Source of the DNA: Megamonas funiformis
GTDB taxonomy: Bacteria > Bacillota > Negativicutes > Selenomonadales > Selenomonadaceae
Length of the DNA stretch: 64,000 nucleotides
Direction of reading: 5' to 3'
NCBI RefSeq assembly: GCF_010669225.1
Contig: NZ_CP048627.1
Coordinates: 2,431,292-2,495,291 of the forward strand
Shown here: positions 2,630 to 19,307 of the stretch, in pieces
Layout: every line of letters starts with the position of its first letter
How positions within the stretch are numbered: the stretch's first letter is position 1
Notes under the pieces: generated by a model
The model's database searches: none
The model's input: only the letters and a program-made list of their open reading frames with translations
What the model was told of the DNA's origin: nothing
Position numbers and translations under genes: made by a program

Positions 2630-3163
2630 TCAATCAGATATTTCTTTTAAAAGTTGTTTCTCATCAAATTTTATTTTTAATAAATAAAAATCTTTTATTA
2701 AAGCTTTCATTTTCACAATAACATCATCATCATTTATACAATTTTTAAAATATCGAGAATAAATTTCTTCTATTCCACCATAAAAATATGAATTAAATAT
2801 TTCTATATTCTCTTTCATTTCATTTGCTTTTTCTTCTGCATAATATCCATTTTTAAAAGAAAAAACTCTTTTTATTTTCTCTTCTTTAGATAAATTTAAA
2901 CTATTATCTAGTAAAAGAACCATTTTTAAAATATTTAAACAGTATTCACTATTATTACTGAACATATCTGTAAATATACTTTGAGTTTCCCTTACACTAA
3001 CATCTTTTTCACTTTTTAAATCAAAACACGCACCATATAATGCACATTGTAAATATACATCATATAATCTTCCAAAAACTTTTTTCTCTTTTAGTTCTTT
3101 CATATATTGTGCATGTTTTCCTTTTATAACAGTTTGTTCTTTAAACCAACATATTCTTTCCAT
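2630..3163 (-). CDS. Unknown protein, last gene of the phosphorothioation defence operon
   Basis: The product is a 177-residue soluble protein with no signal peptide or membrane segment. It appears mostly alpha-helical, with charged helices rich in Lys and Glu. The stretch VFGRLYDVYLQCALYG (about residues 28-44) faintly recalls the start of small dnd-system-associated proteins, but I cannot assign a family. It starts 10 bp after the stop of the DndD-like gene, with GAGG eleven bases before its ATG, so it belongs to the same transcript. Position argues for a role with the SMC-like ATPase. It could be an effector subunit, a specificity factor or an immunity partner. No catalytic motif is evident. 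Confidence 0.6.
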   Translation of the reverse strand: MERICWFKEQTVIKGKHAQYMKELKEKKVFGRLYDVYLQCALYGACFDLKSEKDVSVRETQSIFTDMFSNNSEYCLNILKMVLLLDNSLNLSKEEKIKRVFSFKNGYYAEEKANEMKENIEIFNSYFYGGIEEIYSRYFKNCINDDDVIVKMKALIKDFYLLKIKFDEKQLLKEISD

Positions 3164-3173: not shown

Positions 3174-5168
3174 CTATAAATTATTTAATTCAATCAATGA
3201 TGTCTTTATTTCTGAATATTTTTCTAGCTTATATTTTCTTCCAATTCTTTTTTCTAAATAAGCTTCTGCATATTTATAATCCTTCTGCATAACAAACATA
3301 ATCACTTGTTCTGCAACATCTGGTAAAACTTTTGAAATCTTCGCCGTATGACCTTCATCTGCATTTGAAAAAGGTGCATCCATTACTAACGGATAAGGCT
3401 CTGATGATAAATCTATAAAATCATCTCCTGCCTTACTAACTATTTTTTCTTTTGCTAAAGATACTAATCCGCCAATAAATGCAAAATTTTTAACCCTATC
3501 TAGTCCCTCTGATTTTCCTGTATCATATTCATTATCTAATACCTTAGTTATTAAATTCACTTTATATTTATCATCAATCTTAACTATTCTTTCGCCAGAA
3601 TAAATTTGATTAAAAATATCATTTACCTTTTTTTCTAATCTTTCTTTTATTTCTTTTGCTTTTTCTTTTTGATTTTCTTCAATCCATTCTAATAAAGCTT
3701 CAGCATAATTTATATATCTATATATTTTTCTATTATGATCAGTTTTACTTATTAATTTTGATTGTTGTTTTTCTAATATTTCTTTACTTTTTTCACATTT
3801 CCCTTTATTTTCTTTTAATATATCTATCTTTTCTTGCAAATATCTTATTTTTGAACGACATTCATCCCTCTCAAATTCATATTTTCGCATATCATCTTTA
3901 TCTCTTATTGTTTTACGTATTTCTTCTATCCTACATATCTTATCTTCAATATTTTTTTGTAACCTTAATCTATTTTCATACTTCTTTTCAAATTCTTCAA
4001 TATTAGCATAAATATTTTTTTCTCTTATTTCTAATTCATATTTAAATTTTTTTATTTCATCATAAAGATTATCTCCTGAAATTTTTTGTATCTCTTTTAA
4101 AATATAATTATACTCTGATGAATCTTTTTTTACAGAATTACCACATATGCATATTCCTCTATCTAATATCTTTCTTAAGATATGTTCCGATAAACCAGAT
4201 ATTCTATCATCTTTTAAATTCAAAGTATTTATATAAGATAAGCTTTCTTTCATTAAAGGTTTTTCAAAGTATGCTTTTGTTAATCTATGAAAATAATTAT
4301 ATATTTCTGTTTTATTTTCTTCTAAATTCTTCTCATTATTTTTAATTTCATTTTCTAATCTTTTTTCATCTTCTTGCATTCTTTTTGTATCTGCATTAGC
4401 ATGAATGATTTTATCTAATTCTTCCTTTCTATTCTCATATTTTTCTTTATTTTTTTTTGTTTCTTTTATCTGTTCATCAATATTTTGTAACTTTAATTCA
4501 TTATCTTGAATTTTTTGTTCTATTTCAGCACTATCTTGTTCATTATCTGTATCTAATTCCTGCTGAAATTTACCTATAACAGAATCTCTTCTATTCTTCG
4601 TTCCTAAGTGTTCTATTGTTTTTGATAATGCCGATAAACCTAATAATCCTTTTACTGCTTCTGTAACATTTTCCTTATGGCTAATACTATTAACACGTTC
4701 TGTATCAAAAAAGAAATATGTAGATAAATCTTTTGGTAAAATATCATTTATCCATGTTTCCGGAGAATCATCTAATGACACTTGATTACCTGTTTCATTT
4801 TTATACCATACTTTTAAAGGAAACTCATTAACTAATACAGTTTTTCCATTAATCTTTTTATATTCTTGCTTTCTAATAATTCCATATTCAGTATTTTCAT
4901 GTATAATAATAATTTCTACACTTACAATGTTTGTTGATCCATTAAGCATTTCTTCACTAAGCTCATAATTTAATAAAAATTTAGGATTATGATCAAAATT
5001 TACTGTTTTATAAAAACACCAACTAAATGCTTGTAATAATGTAGTTTTTCCGTATGTATTATCACCCAAAATAATAGTTACATTTTTTTGCGGATCATAT
5101 GAAAAATTTATATTTATATCTCCTTTAAATTGTCTAAAATTTTTTAATTTAAGAGACTTTATTAACAT
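3174..5168 (-). CDS. DndD-like SMC/Rad50-type ATPase of the phosphorothioation system
   Basis: This 664-residue ABC/SMC-family ATPase is of the kind used by DNA phosphorothioation systems to sense or remodel DNA. The Walker A GDNTYGKTT lies at residues 35-43. The motif FFFDTERV near 152-159 corresponds to the FFFDGE signature of DndD. Two long Lys/Glu-rich coiled-coil arms (about 205-300 and 350-520) flank a CIC pair at residues 340-342, in the place of a Rad50 zinc hook. The ABC Walker B/D-loop region LVMDAPFSNAD is near 594-604. The ATG follows GAGGTGATAAT, which overlaps the stop of the 53-aa gene upstream. In a locus with SspABCD it probably belongs to the restriction half. Which SspF/G/H letter it takes I cannot say from sequence. 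Confidence 0.82.
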   Translation of the reverse strand: MLIKSLKLKNFRQFKGDININFSYDPQKNVTIILGDNTYGKTTLLQAFSWCFYKTVNFDHNPKFLLNYELSEEMLNGSTNIVSVEIIIIHENTEYGIIRKQEYKKINGKTVLVNEFPLKVWYKNETGNQVSLDDSPETWINDILPKDLSTYFFFDTERVNSISHKENVTEAVKGLLGLSALSKTIEHLGTKNRRDSVIGKFQQELDTDNEQDSAEIEQKIQDNELKLQNIDEQIKETKKNKEKYENRKEELDKIIHANADTKRMQEDEKRLENEIKNNEKNLEENKTEIYNYFHRLTKAYFEKPLMKESLSYINTLNLKDDRISGLSEHILRKILDRGICICGNSVKKDSSEYNYILKEIQKISGDNLYDEIKKFKYELEIREKNIYANIEEFEKKYENRLRLQKNIEDKICRIEEIRKTIRDKDDMRKYEFERDECRSKIRYLQEKIDILKENKGKCEKSKEILEKQQSKLISKTDHNRKIYRYINYAEALLEWIEENQKEKAKEIKERLEKKVNDIFNQIYSGERIVKIDDKYKVNLITKVLDNEYDTGKSEGLDRVKNFAFIGGLVSLAKEKIVSKAGDDFIDLSSEPYPLVMDAPFSNADEGHTAKISKVLPDVAEQVIMFVMQKDYKYAEAYLEKRIGRKYKLEKYSEIKTSLIELNNL

Positions 5169-5177: not shown

Positions 5178-5339
5178 TCATTCATTTACTATATCTATAA
5201 TTGCTCGACGAATATATTCTATCATTTCATTTTTTGTTTTTTTTCTTGTTCTCAAATTTCTTTTTTCTTCAAACAAAACTTTTAATTTTAACTGATTTAA
5301 TTTATTAATATCTACATCTTCCTTATTTTCAAATGACAT
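5178..5339 (-). CDS. 53-aa small protein inside the phosphorothioation operon
   Basis: This short gene encodes 53 residues, starting MSFENKED and ending IIDIVNE. Its ATG overlaps the end of the helicase gene by 11 bp and is preceded by a strong GAGGAGG nine bases upstream. Its stop overlaps the ribosome site of the DndD-like gene, so translation is probably coupled on both sides. It has an acidic N-terminus, a very basic middle (KRNLRTRKKTKNE) and a predicted C-terminal helix (EYIRRAIIDIV). The basic strand plus helix could form a small DNA-binding or ribbon-helix-helix-like unit, but that is inference. Size and position suit the small proteins that accompany DNA-modification systems. It is about half the length of DndE and shows no clear DndE motif. 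Confidence 0.65.
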   Translation of the reverse strand: MSFENKEDVDINKLNQLKLKVLFEEKRNLRTRKKTKNEMIEYIRRAIIDIVNE

Positions 5340-7515
5340 TTTTATCTACCTCCTCTTCATTTAACCTAATATCATATGAAGCTAAAATATCATATATTAA
5401 TTCATCATTAATGTATGGATTTTCTGAAAGATTATTAAAATCTTGCATACGAATAATTTCTCTTTTTACTAAACCTTTCACATTATTAACAATATCATTA
5501 GAGTATATATTTACTTCTTCTAATGATATTGGTAAGGTAATAAAATCATATATTTTAGCAAATTTTTTTCCTTTAAATTTTCTAAGTACTCTTCCTCTTC
5601 TTTGTATATATTCTTTAGGATTCGTACTACTAGCTAATATAAATGCCGTTTCAATACTAGGAATATTTACGCCTTCATCTAAACATCTAATAGCTACTAA
5701 AGCCTGAATAAAATCCCCATCTTCAAAAGCTTTTTTTATATTTTCTCTATCTTTTATTGTTTCTTTAGATGTAAACTGACATACTTTCATATCTAATGTA
5801 TTACCTAATATATTAGTTACTGCATCAATTTGACGCACCTCTTCTGCATCTATAGTATTCTCGTCATAATCAAAATCATTTATGGTTGTCGCTCCACAAT
5901 ACACTAATATATGATTATTATTTTTATAATCTAACATTATTTTCTTTAATTCTATTAACTTATTCTTAGCTCCTGCAACCAATCTAGCTCTCTTTATTAA
6001 TAACATTTTTTCATAATCACTTAACTTAATATATTTTTTATCTTTACTTCTATGTTGATTTATAGATGTTACTAATTTCTTTGTTAACTCAATATAACTA
6101 GATAATTCTGATTCGTCTAAAGTAATTACTATAGGATAATAATAATATGGTGTAAGCATATTATTATTAATAGCTTCTTTTAAAGTGTACTCAATACATT
6201 TTTTTCCAAAATAAGCATATAATCTTTCTGTTCCTTCTATATCACCATGTCTTTCTAATGTGGCAGACAGAGCTAATCTATATGGTATGTTATCAAGTAA
6301 AGCTCTATTTAAATTTTTAGCTCCAAAATTATGAGCTTCATCTATAACTAATAAAATATTTCCCTTTAAAGATTTTATTTGCTTTTGTAAAAAATTGCTA
6401 GAAAATGTTGCATTTGTTGTTACTATACAAAAAAAGTTTAAAAGATTTAAATTATAATTTTTTATAGAAATTTTAACATTATCTTTCCAATTTTTCTGTT
6501 GAGAAGCTGAATAACAAACAATAGGATTTACACCAAATTTTTTTATATCTACAACCCATTGCTCAACTAAATGTTGATAAGGACAAACTATTATAACAGC
6601 TATATTTCTATTAAGATTATTATATATATTTTCAATAGCTGCTAAAGCAGTATATGTTTTACCTGTTCCTGTTGCCATATCAAAAATACCACAGTAATTA
6701 TTCAACTTCCAATTATTAATAGCTTCTTTTTGATAACTATATAACGAAATATCTTTTGGAATTTGTATATCTATTTTTTCATCTCTATTTACATCTTTTA
6801 AATTAATATATTCTTTATCATCTATTTTGAAATCTACTGTTTTTTTCTTATATTTTTCAATTATTAATTTAGAAAGCTTAGGAAACTCTACTACTTTAAT
6901 ATTTTGTTCATTATTATTCCAAATAGATGTAAAAGCTTTTTCTTTTAGAGTTACTCTTTCTACTTCACTTTGCTTCCAGTTACAAAAAACATCTATTGTT
7001 TCATAATTAGCAGACATTGCTGTTGCAGATTCATTCATAGAACCAGAAAAAACTACTTTATTTCCTTCAAAATCTTCTATAATACCCATTTTTTCATGAT
7101 ACATTCCAATAATACCATCTTTTTCCATATAAGCTATTTTTATATCTAAAATATTATCTGAAATTAAATGTGCTAATAAATTTAATCGTTCTAATGAATA
7201 ATAATCTACCGGTTTAGTTGTTATTTGACGTAATAATGCATTTTCTATTATTTTATCTCTTTCATCATATCCTTTTTTTATAGCCATAACATCTTCATCT
7301 GATAAATGCGGAGAAGCAACAATACATATTTTTCCTCCATTTAATACCAAATTAGATATACCTTTTGATATTTCTATTAAAGCAGTCGATGAAAAAAATC
7401 CTACTGCTCTTCTATATATTTTAGCTTCACTTAATAAAGGAATATAAAATTCTGTGATTACATTATCAATTAAAGATCTATATTCTGTTTTTATTACACA
7501 ATCTTTTAAACTCAT
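5329..7515 (-). CDS. PLD-family nuclease fused to SF2 helicase (restriction component)
   Basis: This large effector of about 728 residues has an N-terminal phospholipase-D-like nuclease domain. A single HEK motif (H140-x-K142) is followed by FSGSMNES, like the restriction-type PLD domains that dimerise to form one active site. An SF2 helicase follows, with MATGTGKT (about 281-288), DEAH (about 392), LSATLERHGD and QRRGRVLRK (motif VI). The likely role is ATP-driven translocation and cleavage of invading DNA. ATG 7515 sits 12 bp after the sspA stop. A GTG at 7524 is in frame but has no ribosome site. It lies downstream of sspDBCA in the place where PT-dependent restriction genes are found, and no DUF262-type SspE is present. 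Confidence 0.85.
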   Translation of the reverse strand: MSLKDCVIKTEYRSLIDNVITEFYIPLLSEAKIYRRAVGFFSSTALIEISKGISNLVLNGGKICIVASPHLSDEDVMAIKKGYDERDKIIENALLRQITTKPVDYYSLERLNLLAHLISDNILDIKIAYMEKDGIIGMYHEKMGIIEDFEGNKVVFSGSMNESATAMSANYETIDVFCNWKQSEVERVTLKEKAFTSIWNNNEQNIKVVEFPKLSKLIIEKYKKKTVDFKIDDKEYINLKDVNRDEKIDIQIPKDISLYSYQKEAINNWKLNNYCGIFDMATGTGKTYTALAAIENIYNNLNRNIAVIIVCPYQHLVEQWVVDIKKFGVNPIVCYSASQQKNWKDNVKISIKNYNLNLLNFFCIVTTNATFSSNFLQKQIKSLKGNILLVIDEAHNFGAKNLNRALLDNIPYRLALSATLERHGDIEGTERLYAYFGKKCIEYTLKEAINNNMLTPYYYYPIVITLDESELSSYIELTKKLVTSINQHRSKDKKYIKLSDYEKMLLIKRARLVAGAKNKLIELKKIMLDYKNNNHILVYCGATTINDFDYDENTIDAEEVRQIDAVTNILGNTLDMKVCQFTSKETIKDRENIKKAFEDGDFIQALVAIRCLDEGVNIPSIETAFILASSTNPKEYIQRRGRVLRKFKGKKFAKIYDFITLPISLEEVNIYSNDIVNNVKGLVKREIIRMQDFNNLSENPYINDELIYDILASYDIRLNEEEVDKNVI

Positions 7516-7527
7516 TTTAACCACACT

Positions 7528-8673
7528 CTACATGTTATCTTCTATAACTTCTAAAGCTTTTTCCAGTTCTTCAAAATCTTTATCTGATGTAAAATAATTA
7601 ACACTAAACCTTATAGTTCCAGATGGATAAGTATCCATAAATTGATGTGCTAAAGGAGCACAATGTAAACCTGTTCTAACAGCTATATTAAATTTATTAA
7701 AAATATTACTAGCACTATCACTACTAATTCCATCAATTAAACAAGATACAATTCCAACATATCCAGCTGATTCTCTATTTCCTATAATTTTTATAAACCA
7801 GAATTGCTCTAAAATCTCAATTAATCTTTTTCTTTTTTCTGTTTCTGTTTTAAATAATGTAGATATTCCTTTTTCGTCTATCCAACTTAATGCCGCATTT
7901 AATCCAGCTATTCCCAGGATATTTAATGTTCCAGCTTCAAAATGTTCTGGTAAATTATTTGGCATATCTTGATTAGCAGATTCAAATCCTGTTCCACCAA
8001 AAATAATAGTTGGTATTTGTATATCTGGATTCATAACAAATCCAGATATACCTGTTGGTCCATATAAAGTTTTATGCCCTGCAAATACAGCAAAATCAAA
8101 AATAGATAATCCTACATTACAATCTATTAAACCAGCTGTTTGTGCCATATCTACTAAAGTAATAGCATCATATAATTTAGCAAGTTCAAATATTTTTTCC
8201 ACAGGTGCGATTAGCCCAAAAGAATTACTAGCATGACTAACAATAACAAAATCTGGTGCAATTTTATCAAATTGATATTTTATACGTATTAAATCATATT
8301 CCATATCTTTCGAAACATTTAATGTATGAACTTTTATAACATTTTTCTTTTCATAATAATTTAATACTCTAGTTACTGCATTGTGTTCAAATGGACTAAT
8401 GTATATATTTTTAGCTCCATTTAAAATAACTCCTTGTATGATTAGATTTAATGATATCGTTGCCGTAGGTTCAAATATTACTTGCTTATTAGGACAATGC
8501 AACAAATTTTTTAATTTATTTCTAGTATCTATTATTAAATTATTAGCCTTTTGAGATAAACTATATTGACCTCTTCCAACACTAAATCCATAATTACGAT
8601 AAAAATCATTCATAAAACTATATACTATTTCTGGTTTTGGATACGTTGTTGCTGCATTATCAAAATAAGCCAT
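7528..8673 (-). CDS. sspA: Cysteine desulfurase, sulfur donor for DNA phosphorothioation
   Basis: A PLP-dependent desulfurase that takes sulfur from L-cysteine and forms a persulfide for transfer to the PP-loop sulfurtransferase. The 381-residue protein begins MAYFDNAATTYPKP, typical of fold-type I desulfurases. The PLP lysine is K201 in AGHKTLYGPTG, and the catalytic cysteine is C338 in RTGLHCAP, the compact class-II-like loop rather than the longer IscS loop. A longer in-frame reading exists upstream, but AGGAGG overlapping the sspC stop is well spaced for ATG 8673. The operon position and lack of isc/suf genes nearby support a dedicated DNA-modification role. A general Fe-S or other sulfur-trafficking role remains possible. 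Confidence 0.87.
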   Translation of the reverse strand: MAYFDNAATTYPKPEIVYSFMNDFYRNYGFSVGRGQYSLSQKANNLIIDTRNKLKNLLHCPNKQVIFEPTATISLNLIIQGVILNGAKNIYISPFEHNAVTRVLNYYEKKNVIKVHTLNVSKDMEYDLIRIKYQFDKIAPDFVIVSHASNSFGLIAPVEKIFELAKLYDAITLVDMAQTAGLIDCNVGLSIFDFAVFAGHKTLYGPTGISGFVMNPDIQIPTIIFGGTGFESANQDMPNNLPEHFEAGTLNILGIAGLNAALSWIDEKGISTLFKTETEKRKRLIEILEQFWFIKIIGNRESAGYVGIVSCLIDGISSDSASNIFNKFNIAVRTGLHCAPLAHQFMDTYPSGTIRFSVNYFTSDKDFEELEKALEVIEDNM

Positions 8674-8684: not shown

Positions 8685-11600
8685 CTAACAAAGTTCTTTT
8701 AAAACCTCTATTAAAACTTGTCTTTTTTCTTGCTCTGAAATAGATTGTCCCATAGAATCTATTTCTCCCCAAATGGAATTATATAACAATTTTCCTAAAG
8801 AACCATATTCTACTTTTTCAAATCTTTTTATAATATTATTTCCATCATTATCAATAAAAGTTAATTGATACGAGTTCACATCTCTACTATTTTTTTCTAA
8901 ATTACATTCATCTTTAAATGTATATTCTTCAGCGGTCTTCTTATAAATCTCTAATTGTTCCTTAAAACGAGTAATAGTTTGATAATCCCAATCTTCAATT
9001 CTTAAATCTGTAGCAATTTTAGCTAATTTAGAAATACATTCTGTTTCATCATTTGTTACTTCCTTAAATAATTTCAAACATCGTTCTGTCCCATTTTTAA
9101 ATAACTGCTCATATATTTTAGGATTAAGTGTCTCACACCAATCTTTTATAACTGATGTTAATGATATTTGTTTTATATATTTTTCATTATTTTTTAATAT
9201 ATATTTTTGTTTTACTATATAAATTAATTCATTCTTTAAATCTTCTAAAAGATTATCATAGTAGTTTTTTAAATTAATAACTTTATTAGCTAAATCTCTA
9301 TTAATTTTATTTTCAAAGCCTAATATTAATGGCATCTTTTCAAATAATAATTCATAACTACCTACATTATATTTTAAAATTTTAATAAAAGAAATATATT
9401 GTTTATCTAGTCTTTTACCAGAAGGTAACTCTTTTAATTCTCTTGAATATTTAGGAAGATTTACATACCATCTCTTAATTGCAGATACAAGATAATCATA
9501 AGAATTATTATTTATCTCTTCTTTTACTATAAAAGAAGAAAATGCTTTAGACAAAATTTTTATAAATATTTCTTTATCTTCATTCCAATCAGCATATTGT
9601 AAATAAAATTCTTTTGGTTTGGCATTTATTTGTAATAAAGTATCTGCATTTATATTAACTTGTCCTTTTTGATTTGTAACAATCAAATACTTTTTATATT
9701 CATGAAAAACTATTGATATAAAAATAGGAATTAATCCTTTTCTTAATCCAATATGCATTTTATATGATATTAACTGTTCATATAAATATTCAAAAGAGGT
9801 TTTTCCATTATTTTTAACAAACAATATAAAATCAGAAATAACTTTTAACAAATTAGCTATGTTTTTATCTTTAGGAAACATATTAATTTTAACAATATTA
9901 TTTTCTTTTACTAAGATATTTGTTCTAAGTAATGTACTACGCATTATAGATACTTCTTGTCCATTACCTGTTAGACCTAAATTTTCATCTAATTCATTAT
10001 GAAGTAATGCTGCAATAACTTTATGCCTACTATTATTTGCAATAGATGTTAATTCATTTCTATTAATAGATTCATTATTTATTACAGGTGTTCTAAAATA
10101 CAATTTATCGCATATACTTGACAATAATTCTGTTAAAGTTGCTTTTCTATTTATTTTTTGTTCTTTACCCAAATAAATATACTTAGCAGATAACCTTTCA
10201 GGATGTGTATATTCTAATATATAATCTATTAAAACATCCTTTAAATCTTCATAAATAATATCATATTCTTCAAATAAAACTTTATCATTTATTGCATTAT
10301 CTTTTAATATAGATACAGCATTAAACTCTTTAACTACATTCGTTATATCATTAAAATTTTTCAATAATATAAATATACATCGTTGAGCATTTTTACTAGT
10401 AATAATTATTTTATCTTCAATTTGTTTAATATCATCATTATTATTTAGTATAATAGCATATATTACACCATCTGCCTCTATTAACTCACTTTTAATATTC
10501 CAATCTGTATCATTACTTATCTCACTAGAGTTGATAAATTCAAAAGAAAAAAATCTTACCATCTCTTTATCATCATTATATCGAGATGGATACATGTATT
10601 TATCAAAATTTATGTTATTTAACGTATCTTTTATTAAATTTTTATTAGTTTGTAAAGCTATTTTGTTTTTTATCTGTTCTTTTATATCTATTCCTGAAGA
10701 TTTTTTTAATTGTAGATATTTATTACTTCTTTTTAAATAAATAACATATTCTTTTTCAATTAAATTATCTATAGCTAATTCTATATCTTTTTGATCATAA
10801 TTTATTGAAAAAATATTCATTATCTCATCTTTTGTTGGTTTTAATTTTTCAAACTGCTCTAAAATATACATTAAAGAAATCGTTTTTATTATTTTACTTT
10901 CTAATGATAATTCATTTCCTATTTTATCTAAAATAATACCTGTTAAAATATATACATTATATGTTACCTCAGAATATATTTCTTTTTTTAATAATGGTTC
11001 AAAATAATCAAATATAACATCTGGAGTTATTACATCAAATCTTTCATCATTATATTTATCTAAAAATGATGGCAATGTTGAAATTCCATTTGATGAAAGG
11101 AATGTAAATAAAGTTCGTTCATTCTGAGCAATTCTTTCAGATAATCTAGGCAAAATAAACGTTGATACTGGATGTAAAGGATAAGAAGAATAAATTATTT
11201 TATTTATATCATTTTTCTCTATTTCAGAAAAAATTGCATGAAATTTATATTGATCTATTAAATTCTTAAAATATTTTTTATGTTCATCTTTAAAAATCTT
11301 CCATAATAATTGATCTTTTTTTATAACATTAGCTATAACTTCATAAGTTTGTGAAAAATTATTATTTAAATGGACATGTGTAAATCGTTCAGAAACACCT
11401 CGCCAACCATCAATCTTTTGTTTGGGTAGTTTATCTATATAATTAGATATTTCTTTATGTGAAATTAATATTAAATGTAATTGTTCTTCTCCACTTCTAT
11501 TACATTTTTCTGCAAAATCTTGTAGCATTTTTGTATCACTTACAGATGCTTCCATTATATTGGCTTCTAAAAATTTACTAAATTCATCATAAACAACTAT

Positions 11601-12311
11601 AATACCTGTATAACCTTTTTTCTTAATACCTTTTAATGCACTTTCATATAACTCAACCACATCAAAACCTAAAAAAGGATTAAATGTACTTCCCGCTGTT
11701 AAAGATGGATATATTTTCTCAAAATTTTCATATATACTAATATCAAAATTTTCAAGAGCCTCAATATATTTATTAATAGGCATATCTATCTTTTCTATAA
11801 ATTCATTATAAGTAAATGAAAAATCTTTTTTCCATCTGTCAATAACACTAATAGCAGCTTTATAATTTGTTTCTGGCATTGCATCTAATAAATCATACTC
11901 AGACAAAGTTCTCTGTAAAGCTAACAAAAAAGCTTGTGGTATACTTGTATTACTGCCAGATATTATGACAGGTAATATTTTACTATTTGTATCATAATAA
12001 TTTTTTATATATTTATATCTGTCAGAATTACTTTCTATCTCAGGTAATAATCTTTCAAATAAAGATATATCTTTCTTCATTAGTATTGATAAAATCATCA
12101 ATACTATATGTGATTTACCTTTCCCATAAGCTCCTATTAAAACCCTTGCTCTATCAGTTGAAGTGTTTCTTGTACTTAATAAAATATCTTCTAATAAATC
12201 TAATGCAACTTTTGTTGGTATAAAATTTCTTAATTTATTATCATCATTTAAATCATATGCAATATTAACAGAATACTGAAATCCTGATGCAACCGATATC
12301 ATTTTACTCAT
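8685..12311 (-). CDS. sspC: Large P-loop ATPase of the Ssp phosphorothioation system
   Basis: This 1208-residue cytoplasmic ATPase has an N-terminal P-loop GAYGKGKSH (residues 60-68) and Walker B IIVVYDEF (236-243). The N-terminal third resembles the large ATPases of BREX and phosphorothioation systems. The rest (about 400-1208) is helical and has no motif I recognise. Its ATG follows AGGAGA by seven bases and is 16 bp after sspB. Position between a DUF4007 gene and a cysteine desulfurase, beside a PP-loop gene, identifies it as SspC, thought to drive the modification complex on DNA. Assignment rests mainly on synteny plus the P-loop. Very high A+T and Lys/Ile/Asn use match the other genes of the island. 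Confidence 0.78.
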   Translation of the reverse strand: MSKMISVASGFQYSVNIAYDLNDDNKLRNFIPTKVALDLLEDILLSTRNTSTDRARVLIGAYGKGKSHIVLMILSILMKKDISLFERLLPEIESNSDRYKYIKNYYDTNSKILPVIISGSNTSIPQAFLLALQRTLSEYDLLDAMPETNYKAAISVIDRWKKDFSFTYNEFIEKIDMPINKYIEALENFDISIYENFEKIYPSLTAGSTFNPFLGFDVVELYESALKGIKKKGYTGIIVVYDEFSKFLEANIMEASVSDTKMLQDFAEKCNRSGEEQLHLILISHKEISNYIDKLPKQKIDGWRGVSERFTHVHLNNNFSQTYEVIANVIKKDQLLWKIFKDEHKKYFKNLIDQYKFHAIFSEIEKNDINKIIYSSYPLHPVSTFILPRLSERIAQNERTLFTFLSSNGISTLPSFLDKYNDERFDVITPDVIFDYFEPLLKKEIYSEVTYNVYILTGIILDKIGNELSLESKIIKTISLMYILEQFEKLKPTKDEIMNIFSINYDQKDIELAIDNLIEKEYVIYLKRSNKYLQLKKSSGIDIKEQIKNKIALQTNKNLIKDTLNNINFDKYMYPSRYNDDKEMVRFFSFEFINSSEISNDTDWNIKSELIEADGVIYAIILNNNDDIKQIEDKIIITSKNAQRCIFILLKNFNDITNVVKEFNAVSILKDNAINDKVLFEEYDIIYEDLKDVLIDYILEYTHPERLSAKYIYLGKEQKINRKATLTELLSSICDKLYFRTPVINNESINRNELTSIANNSRHKVIAALLHNELDENLGLTGNGQEVSIMRSTLLRTNILVKENNIVKINMFPKDKNIANLLKVISDFILFVKNNGKTSFEYLYEQLISYKMHIGLRKGLIPIFISIVFHEYKKYLIVTNQKGQVNINADTLLQINAKPKEFYLQYADWNEDKEIFIKILSKAFSSFIVKEEINNNSYDYLVSAIKRWYVNLPKYSRELKELPSGKRLDKQYISFIKILKYNVGSYELLFEKMPLILGFENKINRDLANKVINLKNYYDNLLEDLKNELIYIVKQKYILKNNEKYIKQISLTSVIKDWCETLNPKIYEQLFKNGTERCLKLFKEVTNDETECISKLAKIATDLRIEDWDYQTITRFKEQLEIYKKTAEEYTFKDECNLEKNSRDVNSYQLTFIDNDGNNIIKRFEKVEYGSLGKLLYNSIWGEIDSMGQSISEQEKRQVLIEVLKELC

Positions 12312-12327: not shown

Positions 12328-13218
12328 TTATATTTCAATATTTTTATAGTATGTTTCTATACATTCTTGAAAAGTTCTATCATTATTAATACGAATAACA
12401 TCTAACCCTGCTGTTCTAATAATTTTAATTTCTCCTATTTTCTCTACTTTATGCAATAACTCTAATAAACTAATCGAATCTAAATTAAAAATTCTTCCAA
12501 TATTACATGGTGCTATCAATAAATCATTCAAATTAATTTCCCTTTTTCCTTTAGATTGTTCAATAATTATCGCTAATATAATCCATGGATCAAAATCTTT
12601 TATTATTGGTGTAGTTTTTCTATATATCTTTTTCTCTTTATTTAAAATATCAATTAATCCTAATTCACCTAATGGACAATCTATATTATTTTCAGGGGAT
12701 ATTTTACCTGTATGTGTCTTATATCTTGATAAATACGTATTAACAATACATAAAAAATCATCATTTAAGGATCTCAATGCAACAGAAAAATTTTCATCAT
12801 TCATTAAAACAAAATTTTCTAAACTTCTCACAAAATCTTCTTTAGTAAATTCAGACATAAAAAATTCATTAAAGAAAAAATACCATGCTGTTGCATTTTC
12901 TTTATTAGTAGCTAATTTATATTGTAACAAATGTAATGTTCCTAGCTCTTCAATATATCTATCATGAACAAAAACACTTTTTCCTAGCTCTGTAAGTGTC
13001 TGTATACGTTGTCCTGATTTATTTTCTTCTGTTAATCCTACTACTTGCAACCAATATCTTAATGACTTCACCATATTAGCTCCAATACCTAATATATCCA
13101 TAGGATTTTCATTTTTATCTACAAAAACATTAGGTTTTCTATAAACATATTTCATTCCCTTATTAAGCCAACCTTTTCGTATAAAAAAAGTATCATGAGC
13201 TCGAAACTTCATTTTCAT
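12328..13218 (-). CDS. sspB: DUF4007 protein, SspB (DNA-nicking subunit of phosphorothioation)
   Basis: The 296-residue protein opens with the DUF4007 signature: FRAHDTFFIRKGWLNKG (residues 5-21), then LGIGANMVKSLRYWLQ near 43-58. In characterised Ssp systems the DUF4007 protein SspB nicks DNA so that sulfur can be placed in one strand. That role is from family knowledge, and no nuclease triad can be confirmed by eye. The C-terminal part (about 190-296) looks like a winged-helix or other small DNA-contact domain. GGGGGT lies eight bases before ATG 13218. A second ATG two codons later is also possible. The gene is 20 bp after sspD and 16 bp before sspC, as expected for a co-translated modification module. 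Confidence 0.85.
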   Translation of the reverse strand: MKMKFRAHDTFFIRKGWLNKGMKYVYRKPNVFVDKNENPMDILGIGANMVKSLRYWLQVVGLTEENKSGQRIQTLTELGKSVFVHDRYIEELGTLHLLQYKLATNKENATAWYFFFNEFFMSEFTKEDFVRSLENFVLMNDENFSVALRSLNDDFLCIVNTYLSRYKTHTGKISPENNIDCPLGELGLIDILNKEKKIYRKTTPIIKDFDPWIILAIIIEQSKGKREINLNDLLIAPCNIGRIFNLDSISLLELLHKVEKIGEIKIIRTAGLDVIRINNDRTFQECIETYYKNIEI

Positions 13219-13238: not shown

Positions 13239-14954
13239 TTATTTTGTACGTAAATACTTATCCATCATACATCCACCTTCTAAGTATTTTGCTGTAACAC
13301 ACATTTTACATCTAATACATTTATTAGAATCTATGTTATATGTTCCAGCGATAATAGAAATAGCTCCTGCTTTACATAAAGATTCACATTTTAAACATTT
13401 TCTGCATGCATTAAACTTTCTTACTTGATATTGAATCATACGTTGTAATTTTTCATGATCTGCTACATTCATAGTTTTTATTTTTACAGCATACTCATAT
13501 TTTTCTTCTCCAAAAGGTTGAATGGATATAATTGGTACATTAGTTTTTACATCTAATATTAAAATTTCATTTAATATTTTTTGACCTAAATCTCTAGATA
13601 TTTTTCCTAATGGTGTAAACATCCCTATTAATTCATCATCAAAAGGTTTTACTAATTTATATATTTTAGCATTATCTTCTGTTGTGCAATTTGTAAATTT
13701 TATCTTTACATCATTTGCAGATACTAAACCATTTCCACCTTGTCTAGCTTTCCATTTTCCTGTATCAACATATACTTCTGGATCTGGTTTTCCTATTTTT
13801 CTCGCAAAATCAATAAGAAAATCTCTCCATTTCTTAGACTGTTCTGGCATATATATTTTAGATAAGAATTGTGCCCTTTGTGTATTATTTGGGCAACACC
13901 AACAACCTACACGATCATACCCTAATCTATAGGCATCATTAAAATCAATTTTTTCACTAAAAATATACAACCAAATATCAATATCTTTCCAAAAAAATAT
14001 TGGTGAAGCCACCGTTTGTTGTTGTATTTTAACTGATTCTGCATTATTTTCTACTCTATTATATTTACTTCTACTAACAGATTCTGATTTTCTAACACCA
14101 TAAAACGTTAAAATTTGTTGATTCCTATACAGATTATTAATAATTCTAGTTATTGGTCCTGTTTTAAACATTGAACAACACCATCTCATCATTCTTGCTG
14201 GTGGACCAATATCTGAACATACATTATAAAAATCTTGTTCACGATTTTTAGCAATTTTAAAGATTGACATCATATGTGCCTTTCTATATCTAGATACATA
14301 ATCTTGAGTAAATGGAAATTCTAATGTAGTATCTCCAAAAATATGAACTAATCTAGGATTACTCAAAGCTTTTATTACAATATCTGATGTAACTGTTGAA
14401 TCTTTTCCTCCAGAAAAAGACAATACTATATTTTCTATTTTATATTTACTAGAAACATTTTTTATAAATAAAAAAGCTTCTTCTTTCAAAGCATTTAATC
14501 GTAATATATTAGCTTTAATAAAACGCTCAATGTATTTATCAAAAAATATATAATTATTCTGTTCCATATATTTATCTATTTTTTTTATTACATCATCAAC
14601 ATTTATTTTATTAAATAACTTACTTGGTAAAATAAATGATTTCCCATCAATATAATATCTACTATTAGACGCCCAAACTGATGATTTTATAAATTGATTT
14701 GGTTTTTTCTCCAACAATATTTCTATTAATAAACGTTCTTCTGGAAAAACAGGTCTCAAATCTGCTGACATATATTTTATTTTAGTATTACAAACTGGAC
14801 ATATTCCTTTGTTTGCTTGTGTTTCATCTTGTATTATAGGTATTCTACAATCAGGACACCAATATATTTTAGCTGGAATATCTTCTATTGTCTTAGTATT
14901 ACAAATTGGACAATAATCTTCATTAGTCTCTATATTACATGTTTTACACCACAT
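13239..14954 (-). CDS. sspD: PP-loop (PAPS-reductase-like) sulfurtransferase with Zn ribbons and ferredoxin domain
   Basis: This is the likely sulfur-inserting enzyme of DNA phosphorothioation. It would activate the backbone phosphate with ATP and deliver sulfur from the desulfurase. The 571 residues read as two N-terminal zinc ribbons (CxxC pairs at 3/6, 15/18, 33/36 and 52/55), a PP-loop ATPase domain with SFSGGKDST at 179-187, a Cys-rich GCWCCPNNTQRAQF segment, and a C-terminal 2x[4Fe-4S] ferredoxin-like tail in the last 60 residues (CRKCLKCESLC and CIRCKMC). The PP-loop and WCC/CWCC motifs are those of PAPS reductase/DndC relatives. The first gene of the operon, it starts at ATG 14954 behind AAGGAGGG. 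The Zn-ribbon and Fe-S additions argue against ordinary sulfate assimilation, for which no cys genes are present. Confidence 0.87.
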   Translation of the reverse strand: MWCKTCNIETNEDYCPICNTKTIEDIPAKIYWCPDCRIPIIQDETQANKGICPVCNTKIKYMSADLRPVFPEERLLIEILLEKKPNQFIKSSVWASNSRYYIDGKSFILPSKLFNKINVDDVIKKIDKYMEQNNYIFFDKYIERFIKANILRLNALKEEAFLFIKNVSSKYKIENIVLSFSGGKDSTVTSDIVIKALSNPRLVHIFGDTTLEFPFTQDYVSRYRKAHMMSIFKIAKNREQDFYNVCSDIGPPARMMRWCCSMFKTGPITRIINNLYRNQQILTFYGVRKSESVSRSKYNRVENNAESVKIQQQTVASPIFFWKDIDIWLYIFSEKIDFNDAYRLGYDRVGCWCCPNNTQRAQFLSKIYMPEQSKKWRDFLIDFARKIGKPDPEVYVDTGKWKARQGGNGLVSANDVKIKFTNCTTEDNAKIYKLVKPFDDELIGMFTPLGKISRDLGQKILNEILILDVKTNVPIISIQPFGEEKYEYAVKIKTMNVADHEKLQRMIQYQVRKFNACRKCLKCESLCKAGAISIIAGTYNIDSNKCIRCKMCVTAKYLEGGCMMDKYLRTK

Positions 14955-15207: not shown

Positions 15208-15906
15208 TCAATCAAGCTTTAACATACGATAGCCAATCCCTATATGTGTTTGAATATATTCTGGATTAGCTGTATCTATTTCTATTTTCTTACGCAATGT
15301 TGCCATAAATACACGCAAAGAAGCTACATTATTATCCCAAGCATTACCCCATACTTCTCGTGTTATATAAGTATGCGTTAATACTTTGCCTATATTTTTA
15401 GCCAATAAACATAATAATTTATATTCAATCGGTGTTAAATGTAATTCTTTACCTCTACAATATGCACAACCAGATACATAATCTATCTTTAACTCGCCAT
15501 TAACAAATATACTATTTTCCTTATGCGGAGTTTGTACACAATTTATCCTGCGAATAGTAACTCTAAGTCTAGCTAAAAATTCTTCTACAGAAAAAGGCTT
15601 TGTTATATAATCATCTGCCCCAGCATCTAAAGCTTCAATTTTATCTCTATCTTCACATCTAGCACTAATTACAATAATTGGCATATTTGACCACGAACGA
15701 ACTTTTGTTATAATTTCTACCCCATCCATATCAGGAAGCCCCAAATCCAATAGCATAATATCTGGTTGATTTGATACTGCTTCTAATAAAGCCTGTGAGC
15801 CTGTAGTTGCTACGTGAAATTTATAATTTTGCATTTTTAATGTAGTAGATATTAAATTTCTAACTGCTGCATCATCTTCAACAATTAATATCATTGGCTT
15901 ATTCAT
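15208..15906 (-). CDS. kdpE: KdpE response regulator
   Basis: An OmpR/PhoB-family regulator that activates kdp genes when phosphorylated by KdpD under K+ limitation. The 232 residues comprise a receiver domain, with acidic pocket E10/D11/D12, phospho-acceptor D54 in MLLDLGLPD and the conserved Lys in YITKPFS, and a C-terminal winged helix from about residue 130 (LTPIEYKLLCLLA, REVWG, SLRVFMATLRKKIE). The ATG overlaps the end of kdpD, with GAGGAG ten bases upstream inside kdpD, so translation is coupled. Its likely target is the direct repeat upstream of kdpF. It is last in a kdpFABC-DE order. Confidence 0.95.
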   Translation of the reverse strand: MNKPMILIVEDDAAVRNLISTTLKMQNYKFHVATTGSQALLEAVSNQPDIMLLDLGLPDMDGVEIITKVRSWSNMPIIVISARCEDRDKIEALDAGADDYITKPFSVEEFLARLRVTIRRINCVQTPHKENSIFVNGELKIDYVSGCAYCRGKELHLTPIEYKLLCLLAKNIGKVLTHTYITREVWGNAWDNNVASLRVFMATLRKKIEIDTANPEYIQTHIGIGYRMLKLD

Positions 15907-18601
15907 TAAAATTAATCTCCTCTTTTGGTAACGTAAATATAAAAACTGTTCCTTGTGGTTTATTATCTCTTACCTTTATCTCTCCACCATGTGCCATAAT
16001 AATAGATTTACACAAACTAAGACCTATACCAATTCCTCTTCTACTATCAGCTACAGTAGAATTTGCTGTATAAAACATTTCAAAAAGCTTATCTTTTGCT
16101 TCATCACTAATGCCTTGACCATTATCTGCAATAGAAACTTCAATTTTATCACTTTTTATTTTTGCACTAATAGTAATAGTTGAGTCTTTTGGGGTATATT
16201 TTATGGCATTATCTATTATATTTATAAATACTTGTACTAATAAACGTGCGTCAACTTTTACCATCATTATATCTTTTGTTTCTTCAAAAACTATATGATG
16301 ATTTTTTCCTCGACGATATAAATGCTTTAAAGCTTCATTTATAATATCGTCTAATAACTCAGTTTGTAAGTTAATCTTCATCGTCTTATTTTCTATACGC
16401 GTAATAAATAAAATATTCTCTACTAAATTAATCAACCACATTGAATCATCATAAATATTATTATATAATTCCTGTCGTTTAACATCATCTATTTTAGCGC
16501 TATTACTTAATAAAAAGTCAGCATTACCAGAAATACTTGTAAGTGGTGTTCTTAAATCATGCGAAATTGAACGCAACAAATTTGACCTAAGCTGTTCATT
16601 TTTTGCTTGTAAATAAATTTCTTGACGCTTTTTACTATATATTTCTTTTTCTAAAGCTAATGCACATTCACCTAAAATAGATAAGACCAAATTATTTTCA
16701 AATACATCTAAATCCTCATTATCAATAGCTATACCTACGACACCATATACATTATCTTTAGAACGAATTGCCAAATACTGACATTTAGCATTATTTAATG
16801 TACCTGTTTTTACACCTGCTCGTTTATTATTTTTATAAACCCATTGTGCTACAGCTCTTTCATTACTATTTATCAATTGTTCTGTATGAACATCATTTTT
16901 TACATTATAAACAACAGGTGGCAATAAACCTTTTTTATCCGCACTATAATACACTATTGTTTTGTTTAACAATTTTAAAAGTTGATGAGATGTAACTGTT
17001 GCTATAGCTGCATCACTGCCTGCTTGTTGCAATAATTGATTTGTCTCTAATAATATTTTAGTTCGATAAGCTAATTTAGCAGACTGTATAGCTTGTTTTT
17101 TTATTTTATTAGTAAGACCTCCTGTAACAAAAGCTGATACAAACATTACAGAGAACGTAATAATATATACTGGGTCATATGCCGTAAAAGTATATCTAGG
17201 TTCAATAAATAAAAAATCAAATGCTAATACATTCAAAACAGATAATACTACACTATATAATCTCTTCGATGTTTTTAAGGCAGCAATTAATACACCTAAG
17301 ATATATACTGTCATGATATTAGCTTCGCCTAAATTCATTGAATAAAATAACATACCAATCATACTAGTTATTATTAAAATAACTAATATAGTTATAATAT
17401 CTGATGTATTACATATCTCTCTTTCATTTACGGATTTCTTCCAAAAATTTTTATAAAATAAAGCTTTATTATCTGGAATTACATGTATATCTAAATTCGG
17501 TAATTGTTCAATTAATTTATCGGTAAAAGATTTACGCATTAAACGCATAAATCCATTTCTAGCAATACTTCTTCCTATGACTAATTTTGATACACCAGCA
17601 AGTCTTGCAAATTCTGCTATTTGAAACGGTATGTCTTCTCCTACTACCATTTCAATTTTTGCTCCTAATTGCTCTGCTAAATGAATATTTTCCTTCAATC
17701 TTTTTTTATTTTCTAATGAAGTTTTTTCAAAACTTGATGTCTGCACAAATAAAGCTGTAAATTGAGCTTTAAAAGCATTTGCCATTCTTGCCGCTGTACG
17801 AATAATCTTAGAATTTGATGGCGATGATGATAAACATACTAAAATATGTTCATTCGTATAATAATCTTTATTATTTTCATTTTTAACCTTTAAAGATATT
17901 TTATTTACTCTATCAGCCATGCGACGAAGTGCAATTTCTCTAAGCGCTGTTAAATTTTCAACAGTAAAAAAATTCCCCAATGCCCTATCAGCTTGTTCTT
18001 TTTGGTAAATTTTTCCTTCTGATAAACGTGTTACTAAATCCGATGGTTCTATATCTACTAATTCCACTTGCTCAGCTTCATCAAAAATTCTATCTGGTAT
18101 ACGTTCTCTCACAATTATTTTGGTAATTGAAGCCACAATATCATTTAAGCTTTCTATATGTTGTACATTAATTGTTGTATATACATCAATGCCTGCTTTT
18201 AATAATTCTTCAATATCCTGATAACGTTTGATATGACGACAACCATCTGCATTTGTATGTGCTAATTCATCAACCAAAATTAATTGTGGATTTCTTTTTA
18301 TAGCTGCATCTAAATTAAATTCATTTAAAGTTATATCTTTATGATTAATCACTAATGGTGAAATTACTTCTAAACCATTAACTAAAGCTGCAGTTGCTGG
18401 TCTTGCATGAGGTTCTATATAGCCTGCTACTACATCAATTCCTTGCTTTTTGGCTTCATGTGCAGCTTCTAACATAGCATAAGTTTTACCAACACCTGCT
18501 GCATAGCCAAAAAATATTTTTAATTTTCCTCGTTTTGATTCATGCTCTTCTATATGAATTTGTTCCAAAATTTTCTCTGGCGATTTTCGTATAATTGGCA
18601 T
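15899..18601 (-). CDS. kdpD: KdpD sensor histidine kinase
   Basis: A membrane sensor of low K+ or osmotic stress that phosphorylates KdpE. The roughly 900-residue protein is the full-length form. In order it has an N-terminal KdpD domain with GYAAGVGKTYAMLEAA (P-loop) and AGYIEPHARP, a universal-stress-protein domain (about 235-370), a four-segment DUF4118 membrane region (about 400-500), a GAF-like region, HisKA with SISHDLRTPL (His near 680) and a HATPase domain (DNAIKYTP, ADNGQGIS, GIGIGLSL). GGGAGGGG seven bases before ATG 18601 fixes the start. An upstream in-frame reading to 18649 lacks a ribosome site and would cross the palindrome behind kdpC. Confidence 0.95.
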   Translation of the reverse strand: MPIIRKSPEKILEQIHIEEHESKRGKLKIFFGYAAGVGKTYAMLEAAHEAKKQGIDVVAGYIEPHARPATAALVNGLEVISPLVINHKDITLNEFNLDAAIKRNPQLILVDELAHTNADGCRHIKRYQDIEELLKAGIDVYTTINVQHIESLNDIVASITKIIVRERIPDRIFDEAEQVELVDIEPSDLVTRLSEGKIYQKEQADRALGNFFTVENLTALREIALRRMADRVNKISLKVKNENNKDYYTNEHILVCLSSSPSNSKIIRTAARMANAFKAQFTALFVQTSSFEKTSLENKKRLKENIHLAEQLGAKIEMVVGEDIPFQIAEFARLAGVSKLVIGRSIARNGFMRLMRKSFTDKLIEQLPNLDIHVIPDNKALFYKNFWKKSVNEREICNTSDIITILVILIITSMIGMLFYSMNLGEANIMTVYILGVLIAALKTSKRLYSVVLSVLNVLAFDFLFIEPRYTFTAYDPVYIITFSVMFVSAFVTGGLTNKIKKQAIQSAKLAYRTKILLETNQLLQQAGSDAAIATVTSHQLLKLLNKTIVYYSADKKGLLPPVVYNVKNDVHTEQLINSNERAVAQWVYKNNKRAGVKTGTLNNAKCQYLAIRSKDNVYGVVGIAIDNEDLDVFENNLVLSILGECALALEKEIYSKKRQEIYLQAKNEQLRSNLLRSISHDLRTPLTSISGNADFLLSNSAKIDDVKRQELYNNIYDDSMWLINLVENILFITRIENKTMKINLQTELLDDIINEALKHLYRRGKNHHIVFEETKDIMMVKVDARLLVQVFINIIDNAIKYTPKDSTITISAKIKSDKIEVSIADNGQGISDEAKDKLFEMFYTANSTVADSRRGIGIGLSLCKSIIMAHGGEIKVRDNKPQGTVFIFTLPKEEINFNE

Positions 18602-18641
18602 ATAAGCCCCTCCCAATTGCATATATGTTATAAACCAATAT

Positions 18642-18685
18642 ACCTCCACATCAAAATATATTTAATATATATTTGACGTGGAGGT
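18642..18685. repeat. 44-bp imperfect palindrome between kdpC and kdpD
   Basis: ACCTCCAC-x-TCAAA on one side (18642-18655) is mirrored by TTTGA-x-GTGGAGGT (18672-18685), with an A/T-rich palindromic centre, giving an almost 20-bp stem. No T-run follows on the minus strand, so it is not a classical terminator. It may stabilise the upstream kdpFABC mRNA end, reduce read-through into kdpDE, or be an operator. Confidence 0.7.
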
Positions 18686-18700
18686 TATCCCTTTAAAATA

Positions 18701-19291
18701 TTAAATTATCTTATCTAACATTAAATTAACTTTTAAAACATTTACTGTTTCTTCACCAAAGAAGCCTAATACTTTATGATTAGTACATTTATCGATAATA
18801 GCATTTACTTCTTCTTTAGTCATATTATTTTCACGAGCTAATCTTTCTACTTGGTATTTTGCTGCAGCTACAGATATATCTGGATCTAAACCGCTACCAG
18901 AATTAGTAACCAAATCTACAGGAATAGGCTCATTACCTTTTTCTGGATTAGCTTTTCTAATTTTTTCTACACGCTGTGCTATTAATTTTTCATAATCTTC
19001 ACTTGCAGGACTTAAATTTGATGGAGCTGCATATGCTAACTGATTTCCCTCAGTATCTTTATAAGTACTAACATCAATTTTTGTTATACGACCCCACATA
19101 TATCTATCACTTGTATATTGTTGACCTAATAATTCACTACCATATTTTACACCATTTACTTCGATAATTTTGCCGTTTGCAGAGTTTGGAAATAATACCT
19201 GACAAATACCTGTCATTACCATTGTATAAATAAATCCACAAAAAACAGTGAAAGTAATTACTGATAGCAATGCTTTTTTGAAATTATCCAT
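18701..19291 (-). CDS. kdpC: KdpC subunit of the K+-transporting ATPase
   Basis: KdpC stabilises the KdpFABC complex and is anchored in the cytoplasmic membrane with a periplasmic-facing body. The 196-residue length is usual. One N-terminal membrane segment (about 9-31) precedes the family core: SAPSNLSPAS-like AAPSNLSPAS near 88-97, SGSGLDPDIS near 130-139, and AAAKYQVERLARENNM. The ATG follows AAAGGTGAG. It is 16 bp after kdpB in one operon and ends before the palindrome preceding kdpD. Confidence 0.95.
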   Translation of the reverse strand: MDNFKKALLSVITFTVFCGFIYTMVMTGICQVLFPNSANGKIIEVNGVKYGSELLGQQYTSDRYMWGRITKIDVSTYKDTEGNQLAYAAPSNLSPASEDYEKLIAQRVEKIRKANPEKGNEPIPVDLVTNSGSGLDPDISVAAAKYQVERLARENNMTKEEVNAIIDKCTNHKVLGFFGEETVNVLKVNLMLDKII

Positions 19292-19307
19292 TACAAACTC
19301 ACCTTTC

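What the first reader, a model, noticed from the sequence alone, without database searches (positions are those of the whole stretch)
13239..14954. SspD carries two N-terminal Zn ribbons and a C-terminal 2x[4Fe-4S] tail
Cys pairs at 3/6, 15/18, 33/36 and 52/55 and two Cys clusters in the last 60 residues flank the PP-loop (SGGKDST at 181-187). DndC-type enzymes usually lack this full set. It implies an extra DNA- or partner-binding module and electron transfer in the sulfur-insertion step.
Basis: partly seen in the sequence, partly recalled or inferred. Interest (0 to 1): 0.6.

Follow-up and report, generated by a model that had tools for sequence, protein, structure and literature searches.

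The report
SspD with zinc ribbons and ferredoxin tail
The gene encodes the sulfur-inserting enzyme of a DNA phosphorothioation defence operon and does carry extra metal-binding modules at both ends, but this layout is common in gut anaerobes, is partly published, and is shared by archaeal relatives that have no such DNA-modification genes, so it is a tidy case rather than a surprise.

Summary
The 571-aa ORF (minus strand) has the four N-terminal CxxC pairs, SGGKDST at 181-187 and two C-terminal Cys clusters as stated. All 23 Cys are nearly invariant in 80 relatives.

It is SspD of an sspD-B-C-A operon followed by pbeA, pbeC and a small ORF. It is BrxP-like, not a canonical SspD. In 398 genomes of its phylum, 20 of 29 with DUF4007 carry this long form; eight of the other nine carry a short SspD without extra modules. 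A tree makes the long form sister to BREX type-4 BrxP. The ferredoxin tail is shared with BrxP, as published in 2026. One ribbon plus the ferredoxin tail are also matched by the archaeal PRK13795 models, found in two methanogens where DUF4007 and DndD were not detected. Only the first ribbon and C423 look specific to this branch.

An extra DNA-binding module is not supported: the ribbons are net negative. Electron supply to sulfur insertion is plausible but untested. Best reading: adenylation by the PP-loop, sulfur activation at a catalytic [4Fe-4S], electrons from the ferredoxin tail, ribbons as docking modules.

The parts
13239..14954 (-). sspD (BrxP-type long SspD), 571 aa
   Evidence: PAPS_reduct E 4.7e-31; PADLOC BrxP 1.7e-80, SspD 4e-14
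14901..14948 (-). zinc ribbon 1, residues 3-18 (C3xxC6, C15xxC18)
   Evidence: in 26 of 33 long SspD sampled; absent from BrxP and from the one-ribbon long SspD
14790..14858 (-). zinc ribbon 2, residues 33-55 (C33xxC36, C52xxC55)
   Evidence: in 33 of 33 long SspD sampled; beta hairpin 28-33/38-43 and strand 60-63 at high pLDDT; matches N-terminus of PRK13795
13887..14432 (-). PP-loop (PAPS reductase-like) domain, residues 175-356
   Evidence: PF01507; fold Z 18.4 to APS reductase 2goy
14394..14414 (-). PP-loop SGGKDST, residues 181-187
14175..14180 (-).
13893..13904 (-). C351xxC354, second half of the catalytic [4Fe-4S] ligand set
13686..13688 (-). C423 in a low-confidence loop; candidate sulfur-carrying or resolving Cys
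   Evidence: 32 of 33 long SspD, 0 of 15 BrxP; loop 404-424 pLDDT under 50
13407..13715 (-). alpha+beta domain, about residues 414-516 (described in the literature for BrxP as Mog1p/PsbP-like)
   Evidence: model; weak fold matches only, best Z 5.9
13374..13406 (-). ferredoxin cluster motif 1, residues 517-527, CxxCxxCxxxC
   Evidence: Foldseek match to Clostridium ferredoxin 9g03_E TMt 0.65
13269..13319 (-). ferredoxin cluster motif 2, residues 546-562, CxxCxxC-x9-C
12328..13218 (-). sspB (DUF4007), 296 aa
   Evidence: E 7.4e-82
8685..12311 (-). sspC ATPase, 1208 aa
   Evidence: E 1.2e-126
7528..8673 (-). sspA cysteine desulfurase (the listed ORF runs to 8772; likely ATG start at 8673)
5329..7524 (-). 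pbeA, PLD/HKD + SF2 helicase restriction protein
   Evidence: E 4.7e-245
3174..5168 (-). pbeC, DndD-like CxC ABC ATPase
   Evidence: E 1.3e-111
2630..3163 (-). 177-aa ORF, weakly like dnd_assoc_4; recurs after pbeC in two other loci

Best explanation
This is the sulfur-transfer enzyme (SspD) of an Ssp-type DNA phosphorothioation operon, of the BrxP-like long form: [one or two zinc ribbons]-[PP-loop domain with CC...CxxC]-[alpha+beta domain]-[2x[4Fe-4S] ferredoxin tail]. Most likely working: SspA takes sulfur from cysteine as a persulfide and hands it to SspD (inferred from SspA-SspD pulldown in another species); the intact PP-loop uses ATP to activate the DNA phosphate at a site presented by SspB/SspC (inferred); the [4Fe-4S] cluster on C259/C260/C351/C354 holds or activates the sulfur (ligands supported by conservation, function inferred); the ferredoxin tail supplies the two electrons needed to turn persulfide sulfur into thiophosphate sulfur, in place of the Cys dyad that DndC has and BrxP lacks (inferred); C423 may carry or resolve the sulfur (inferred); the ribbons dock a partner protein rather than DNA (inferred). 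Shown here: identity, module content, conservation, operon context and relationships.
For: PAPS_reduct domain E 4.7e-31 and ferredoxin-type hits at 512-555; BrxP 1.7e-80. All 23 Cys nearly invariant in 80 sequences. In 80 related loci SspB lies beside D in 76 and SspC in 73; the four loci without SspB end too soon downstream of D to show it. All 20 genomes with long SspD in a 398-genome sample also carry SspB (hypergeometric 4e-27). Tree: long SspD one clade (99/96), sister to BrxP (95/82), apart from short SspD and DndC. Fold of the core like APS reductase, Z 18.4; PP-loop thiolases TtuA/NcsA and LarE at Z 12-14. Ferredoxin tail like clostridial ferredoxin, TMt 0.65. PP-loop intact and no ECGxH reductase motif. 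Literature: SspA binds SspD (PMC7188994); BrxP lacks the DndC Cys dyad and has the ferredoxin region instead (PMC12839542); DndC [4Fe-4S] ligands (PMC12193691); brxPCZL synthesises PT (PMC11931770).
Against: No biochemistry of a long SspD was found, and the role of the ferredoxin tail is called unclear by the authors who described it. The same modules are matched by archaeal PRK13795 models in genomes without detected DUF4007 or DndD, so they may be inherited rather than tuned to DNA. PP-loop thiolases with a [4Fe-4S] can work without redox chemistry (title of PDB entry 5mkp). AlphaFold confidence is low in the ferredoxin tail of the full-length model, and metals are not modelled. Short SspD and DndC manage without the tail.
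Confidence: 0.55

Rival explanations
1. The ferredoxin tail and ribbon are inherited from an archaeal-type PP-loop/PAPS-reductase ancestor (PRK13795-like) and serve stability or assembly; sulfur transfer to DNA is redox-neutral at the catalytic [4Fe-4S], as proposed for TtuA/NcsA tRNA thiolases.
For: PRK13795 models match residues 133-554 and, separately, the N-terminal ribbon of relatives (E 4.9e-9 to 4.3e-7), and ring in M. jannaschii and M. acetivorans, where DUF4007 and DndD do not. A methanogen plasmid protein has the PP-loop domain and ferredoxin tail with no phosphorothioation neighbours (L107). TtuA and NcsA appear in the fold list.
Against: Strict conservation of all eight ferredoxin Cys in 49 of 49 long SspD, BrxP and archaeal sequences suggests working clusters. 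A persulfide donor (SspA) delivers sulfur that needs two electrons.
Confidence: 0.28
2. The N-terminal CxxC pairs bind iron as rubredoxin-like centres and belong to the electron path, rather than being structural zinc ribbons.
For: CPxC knuckles are shared by rubredoxins and zinc ribbons (general knowledge); the protein already carries other Fe-S motifs and the hosts are mostly gut anaerobes.
Against: Weak HMM hits of the N-terminus are nearly all to zinc ribbons or zinc fingers, among them DZR, Zn_ribbon_19 and TFIIB-type. Spacing varies and one relative pair carries a ~90-residue insert between the two knuckles (L149, L151), unlike rubredoxin. Ribbon number varies from one to three.
Confidence: 0.12
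3. The protein is a BREX type-4 BrxP and the operon is a BREX system.
For: Best PADLOC model is BrxP, E 1.7e-80; sister clade of BrxP.
Against: No DUF4007 fused at its C-terminus; separate sspB, sspC and sspA; in the window the operon is followed by pbeA, pbeC and a small ORF, none of which is PglZ or BrxL.
Confidence: 0.04
4. It is an ordinary sulfonucleotide (APS/PAPS) reductase making sulfite.
For: Pfam PAPS_reduct; CC...CxxC set as in APS reductases; fold Z 18.4.
Against: Intact ATP-pyrophosphatase PP-loop SGGKDST and no ECGxH motif; 20 of 20 genomes also carry SspB.
Confidence: 0.03

Closest known systems
BREX type-4 BrxP (PAPS-reductase-type enzyme of brxPCZL)
   Same: PP-loop domain with CC...CxxC, alpha+beta domain, two-motif ferredoxin region with a long last spacing; sister clade; also in a phosphorothioation system
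   Different: No N-terminal ribbons, no C423, DUF4007 (SspB) fused at the C-terminus, neighbours PglZ and BrxL
Canonical short SspD (PADLOC SspD model, about 270 aa)
   Same: Works with SspB and SspC; PP-loop SGGKD; RWC and CxxC
   Different: No ribbons, no ferredoxin tail, only three of the four catalytic Cys, gene order B-C-D, separate branch of the tree
DndC
   Same: PP-loop sulfur transfer for DNA phosphorothioation with a [4Fe-4S] cluster
   Different: Uses C146, C273, C280, C283 (PMC12193691); lacks ribbons and ferredoxin tail
Archaeal PRK13795 family (NF010366-NF010369, hypothetical protein)
   Same: N-terminal ribbon, PP-loop domain and ferredoxin region all matched by profile
   Different: More profile positions between ribbon and PP-loop domain than residues here; no DUF4007 or DndD detected in the two control methanogens that carry it; function not tested
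TtuA/NcsA tRNA thiolases
   Same: PP-loop fold with a catalytic [4Fe-4S]; by general knowledge zinc fingers flank the PP-loop
   Different: tRNA substrate, no ferredoxin domain; distant fold match only (Z 12-14)

Membership tests
Ssp phosphorothioation system (SspABCD) | sspB (DUF4007), sspC ATPase and sspA cysteine desulfurase beside sspD | tested here: met
Ssp phosphorothioation system (SspABCD) | SspD of the canonical short family | tested here: not met
   PADLOC SspD 4e-14 against 1.3e-114 for a short SspD; separate clade. It sits in the SspD role but is not of that subfamily
Ssp phosphorothioation system (SspABCD) | phosphorothioate in the host DNA | not testable with these tools
   needs LC-MS or PT-seq of the host
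BREX type 4 | PglZ and BrxL in the operon | tested here: not met
   the other operon genes are SspB, SspC, SspA, PbeA, PbeC and a small ORF
BREX type 4 | BrxP fused to DUF4007 | tested here: not met
   571 aa, DUF4007 is a separate gene
DndC | TIGR03183 above its cut-off | tested here: not met
   40.5 bits against a cut-off of 290.4
APS/PAPS reductase (CysH) | ECGxH catalytic motif | tested here: not met
   also cysH and APS_reductase models far below cut-off
APS/PAPS reductase (CysH) | CC...CxxC [4Fe-4S] ligands (APS type) | tested here: met
2[4Fe-4S] ferredoxin domain | two clusters of four Cys in a ferredoxin fold | tested here: met
   eight Cys in 49 of 49; structural match TMt 0.65; below Pfam gathering scores
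PRK13795 (archaeal) | NF010368 above its 588-bit cut-off | tested here: not met
   213.7 bits, E 3.9e-63

The most novel reading that the evidence does not exclude
Long SspD is a self-contained redox-coupled phosphorothioation enzyme: a built-in ferredoxin feeds electrons to reduce persulfide sulfur at a four-Cys catalytic [4Fe-4S], replacing the thiol dyad of DndC, with C423 as a mobile sulfur carrier and variable ribbons (one to three) setting the partner. Most SspB-bearing genomes sampled in this phylum would then use a sulfur-insertion chemistry different from that of the studied DndC and short SspD enzymes.
Probability: 0.33. Interest if true: 0.6.

Novelty: new member of a known kind. 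Interest (0 to 1): 0.33.

Why it matters
How sulfur replaces oxygen in the DNA backbone is still disputed for DndC. A widespread enzyme branch that carries its own ferredoxin, a full four-Cys catalytic cluster site and an extra conserved loop Cys gives concrete residues to test whether sulfur insertion is redox-coupled. It also exposes an annotation trap: the PADLOC model set gives its best score to BrxP for these SspD proteins although the operon has no other BREX gene.

Tried and rejected
The Yuan et al. paper on BREX type 4 is not held. The alpha+beta domain gave only weak fold matches (best Z 5.9), so the published Mog1p/PsbP-like assignment was neither confirmed nor excluded. Full-length PDB sequence searches found only ferredoxins, hydrogenase and other Fe-S subunits, PAPS/APS reductases and PP-loop enzymes. 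Considered and rejected: chance Cys pairs, BREX membership, ordinary PAPS reductase. Ribbon-for-fusion compensation (ribbons present where SspB is not fused) fits the long SspD and BrxP branches but rests on one event, and short SspD has neither.

Full report
What is there. The finding lies on the minus strand: 13239-14954 is one ORF of 571 aa with an ATG start. The Cys pairs at 3/6, 15/18, 33/36 and 52/55, the SGGKDST at 181-187 and two Cys clusters at 517-527 and 546-562 are exactly as described, and CxxC pairs are far above chance: 9 against 0.87 expected, with a maximum of 6 in 10,000 shuffles. In 80 aligned sequences (the window's and relatives at 61-100% identity) all 23 Cys are conserved in 77 to 80.

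Context. The gene heads a minus-strand set: sspD, sspB (DUF4007, E 7.4e-82), sspC (1.2e-126), sspA (cysteine desulfurase), pbeA (4.7e-245), pbeC (1.3e-111) and a 177-aa ORF. The set has 24.4% GC against 32.4% for the window beyond 15208, and the one same-genus genome in the sample lacks the gene, which suggests acquisition. In 80 loci found by protein search the same order D-B-C-A recurs; SspB is seen in 76 and SspC in 73, and the four loci without SspB end close to the end of D.

Which SspD it is. The PADLOC SspD model fits it poorly (4e-14) and the BrxP model well (1.7e-80), whereas a short SspD from another genome of the phylum scores 1.3e-114 with the SspD model. In 398 genomes of the phylum DUF4007 occurs in 29. 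Twenty of these have the long SspD, and no genome with the long form lacks DUF4007 (hypergeometric 4e-27). Of the other nine, eight carry a short protein of about 270 aa in order B-C-D with only RWC and CxxC; in one of these (L198) the gene is cut by the contig end at 258 codons. The ninth (L203) has two small proteins with an altered PP-loop, SGGAGS and SGGIGS. A maximum-likelihood tree of the PP-loop domain groups all long SspD (99/96), makes them sister to BrxP (95/82) and places short SspD with DndC elsewhere. Several end branches in that tree are long, the archaeal one most of all, so the place of the archaeal protein is not settled.

Where the modules occur. Ribbon 2 (C33, C36, C52, C55) is in 33 of 33 long SspD sampled. 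Ribbon 1 is in 26 of these, a group that is one clade with moderate support (95/64). Neither is in 15 BrxP. The eight ferredoxin Cys are in all 49 long SspD, BrxP and archaeal sequences. C259, C351 and C354 are in all 49, and C260 in 48. C423 is in 32 of 33 long SspD and in none of 15 BrxP. Ribbon number is not fixed: Robinsoniella peoriensis (L036) has three, two Treponema (L083, L112) have one, and two relatives (L149, L151) have one ribbon with about 90 residues or more between its knuckles.

The full protein matches the NCBIfam PRK13795 models over residues 133-554, E 3.9e-63. N-terminal fragments of relatives alone match the extreme N-terminus of the same models: L150 E 4.9e-9 at profile 36-88, L148 4.3e-7 at 9-49, L145 2.9e-7 at 29-74; the window's own fragment gives 0.0012. 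So these models hold one ribbon, the PP-loop domain and the ferredoxin tail. They ring at E <= 1e-90 in Methanocaldococcus jannaschii and Methanosarcina acetivorans, while DUF4007 rings in none of the 14 control genomes, nor does DndD. A Methanobacterium congolense plasmid protein shows the PP-loop domain with ferredoxin tail and no phosphorothioation neighbours, though without ribbons (L107). Others have described methanogen and ANME APS/PAPS reductase homologues with extra 4Fe-4S domains at either end (PMC6286981). The claim that the architecture implies a DNA-modification role therefore does not hold. The first ribbon and C423 are the parts that look specific. The archaeal sequences themselves could not be read, so this step rests on profile positions and control rings.

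Structure. The full-length AlphaFold model (pLDDT 80.8, pTM 0.75) has ribbon 2 at high confidence, ribbon 1 at 72-84, and a low-confidence loop 404-424 that includes C423. The core aligns to APS reductase 2goy at Z 18.4 (201 residues, 3.3 A), and to PP-loop thiolases TtuA, NcsA and LarE at Z 12-14. A model of the C-terminal 172 residues (pLDDT 84.5) matches clostridial ferredoxin in its last part (9g03_E, TMt 0.65, 33% identity over 51 columns). The alpha+beta part has only weak matches; the literature calls it Mog1p/PsbP-like for BrxP.

What is known. [quoted passage not shown] In its main text I found no mention of zinc ribbons on SspD; its supplement was not readable here. Phosphorothioate synthesis by brxPCZL is stated in PMC11931770, and SspA binds SspD in another species (PMC7188994). 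DndC holds its [4Fe-4S] with C146, C273, C280 and C283, from a structure prediction (PMC12193691). By motif position C146 and C280/C283 correspond to C259 and C351/C354 here, with C260 a likely fourth ligand as in APS reductases; this last mapping is inference.

Mechanism. Shown: identity, operon, conservation and relationships. Inferred: SspA gives persulfide sulfur to SspD; the intact PP-loop (SGGKDST, with no ECGxH motif) spends ATP to activate the phosphate; the catalytic [4Fe-4S] holds the sulfur; two electrons from the ferredoxin tail complete the reduction of persulfide sulfur; C423 may shuttle or resolve. The ribbons average a net charge of -2.5 (sd 2.0), which argues against a simple DNA clamp and for a protein partner, but that is weak evidence. 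The main rival is that the tail is an inherited structural or assembly element and that the transfer is redox-neutral.

Verdict. Novelty is modest: a new member of a known kind whose ferredoxin part is published and whose ribbon is shared with archaeal relatives. The testable residue sets are the useful outcome.

Noticed in passing
L203 (G363:C12:97000-114000), 3800-4675 and 9247-10011: An sspB-sspC-pbeA-pbeC locus with two small SspD-like proteins whose PP-loops read SGGAGS and SGGIGS instead of SGGKDS, one on each side of sspBC.
   Followed up: partly
L108 (MT835493.1) 20001-32236 and L109 (MT835506.1) 19989-32170: Two unverified fecal scaffolds deposited as Bacteriophage sp. carry the whole D-B-C-A-pbeA-pbeC-small ORF operon. 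L108 also has an integrase, PcfJ/PcfK-like genes and an anaerobic ribonucleotide reductase, so it looks more like a bacterial mobile element than a phage.
   Followed up: partly
L036, N-terminus of the SspD relative: Robinsoniella peoriensis SspD has three zinc ribbons through duplication of ribbon 1.
   Followed up: yes
L149 and L151, N-terminus: About 90 residues or more are inserted between the two knuckles of the single ribbon in two SspD relatives.
   Followed up: partly
L112 about 9900-11692 (Treponema saccharophilum plasmid pTS1): The long sspD has no annotated gene in the record and no ATG before its single ribbon; the start codon is unclear or the N-terminus is lost.
   Followed up: partly
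L107 4944-6092 (Methanobacterium congolense plasmid II): A 383-aa PP-loop protein with a ferredoxin tail but no phosphorothioation neighbours; function unknown.
   Followed up: partly
window 15208-23215: Genes next to the operon on the same strand look like a Kdp potassium system (response regulator, sensor kinase, KdpC, KdpB, KdpA), at higher GC than the sspD island; names from reading the ORFs, apart from a Pfam check of the response regulator.
   Followed up: no
window 2630-3163: The 177-aa ORF after pbeC has no Pfam or PADLOC match and only a weak hit to dnd_assoc_4, but recurs after pbeC in L108 and L109; its role is open.
   Followed up: partly
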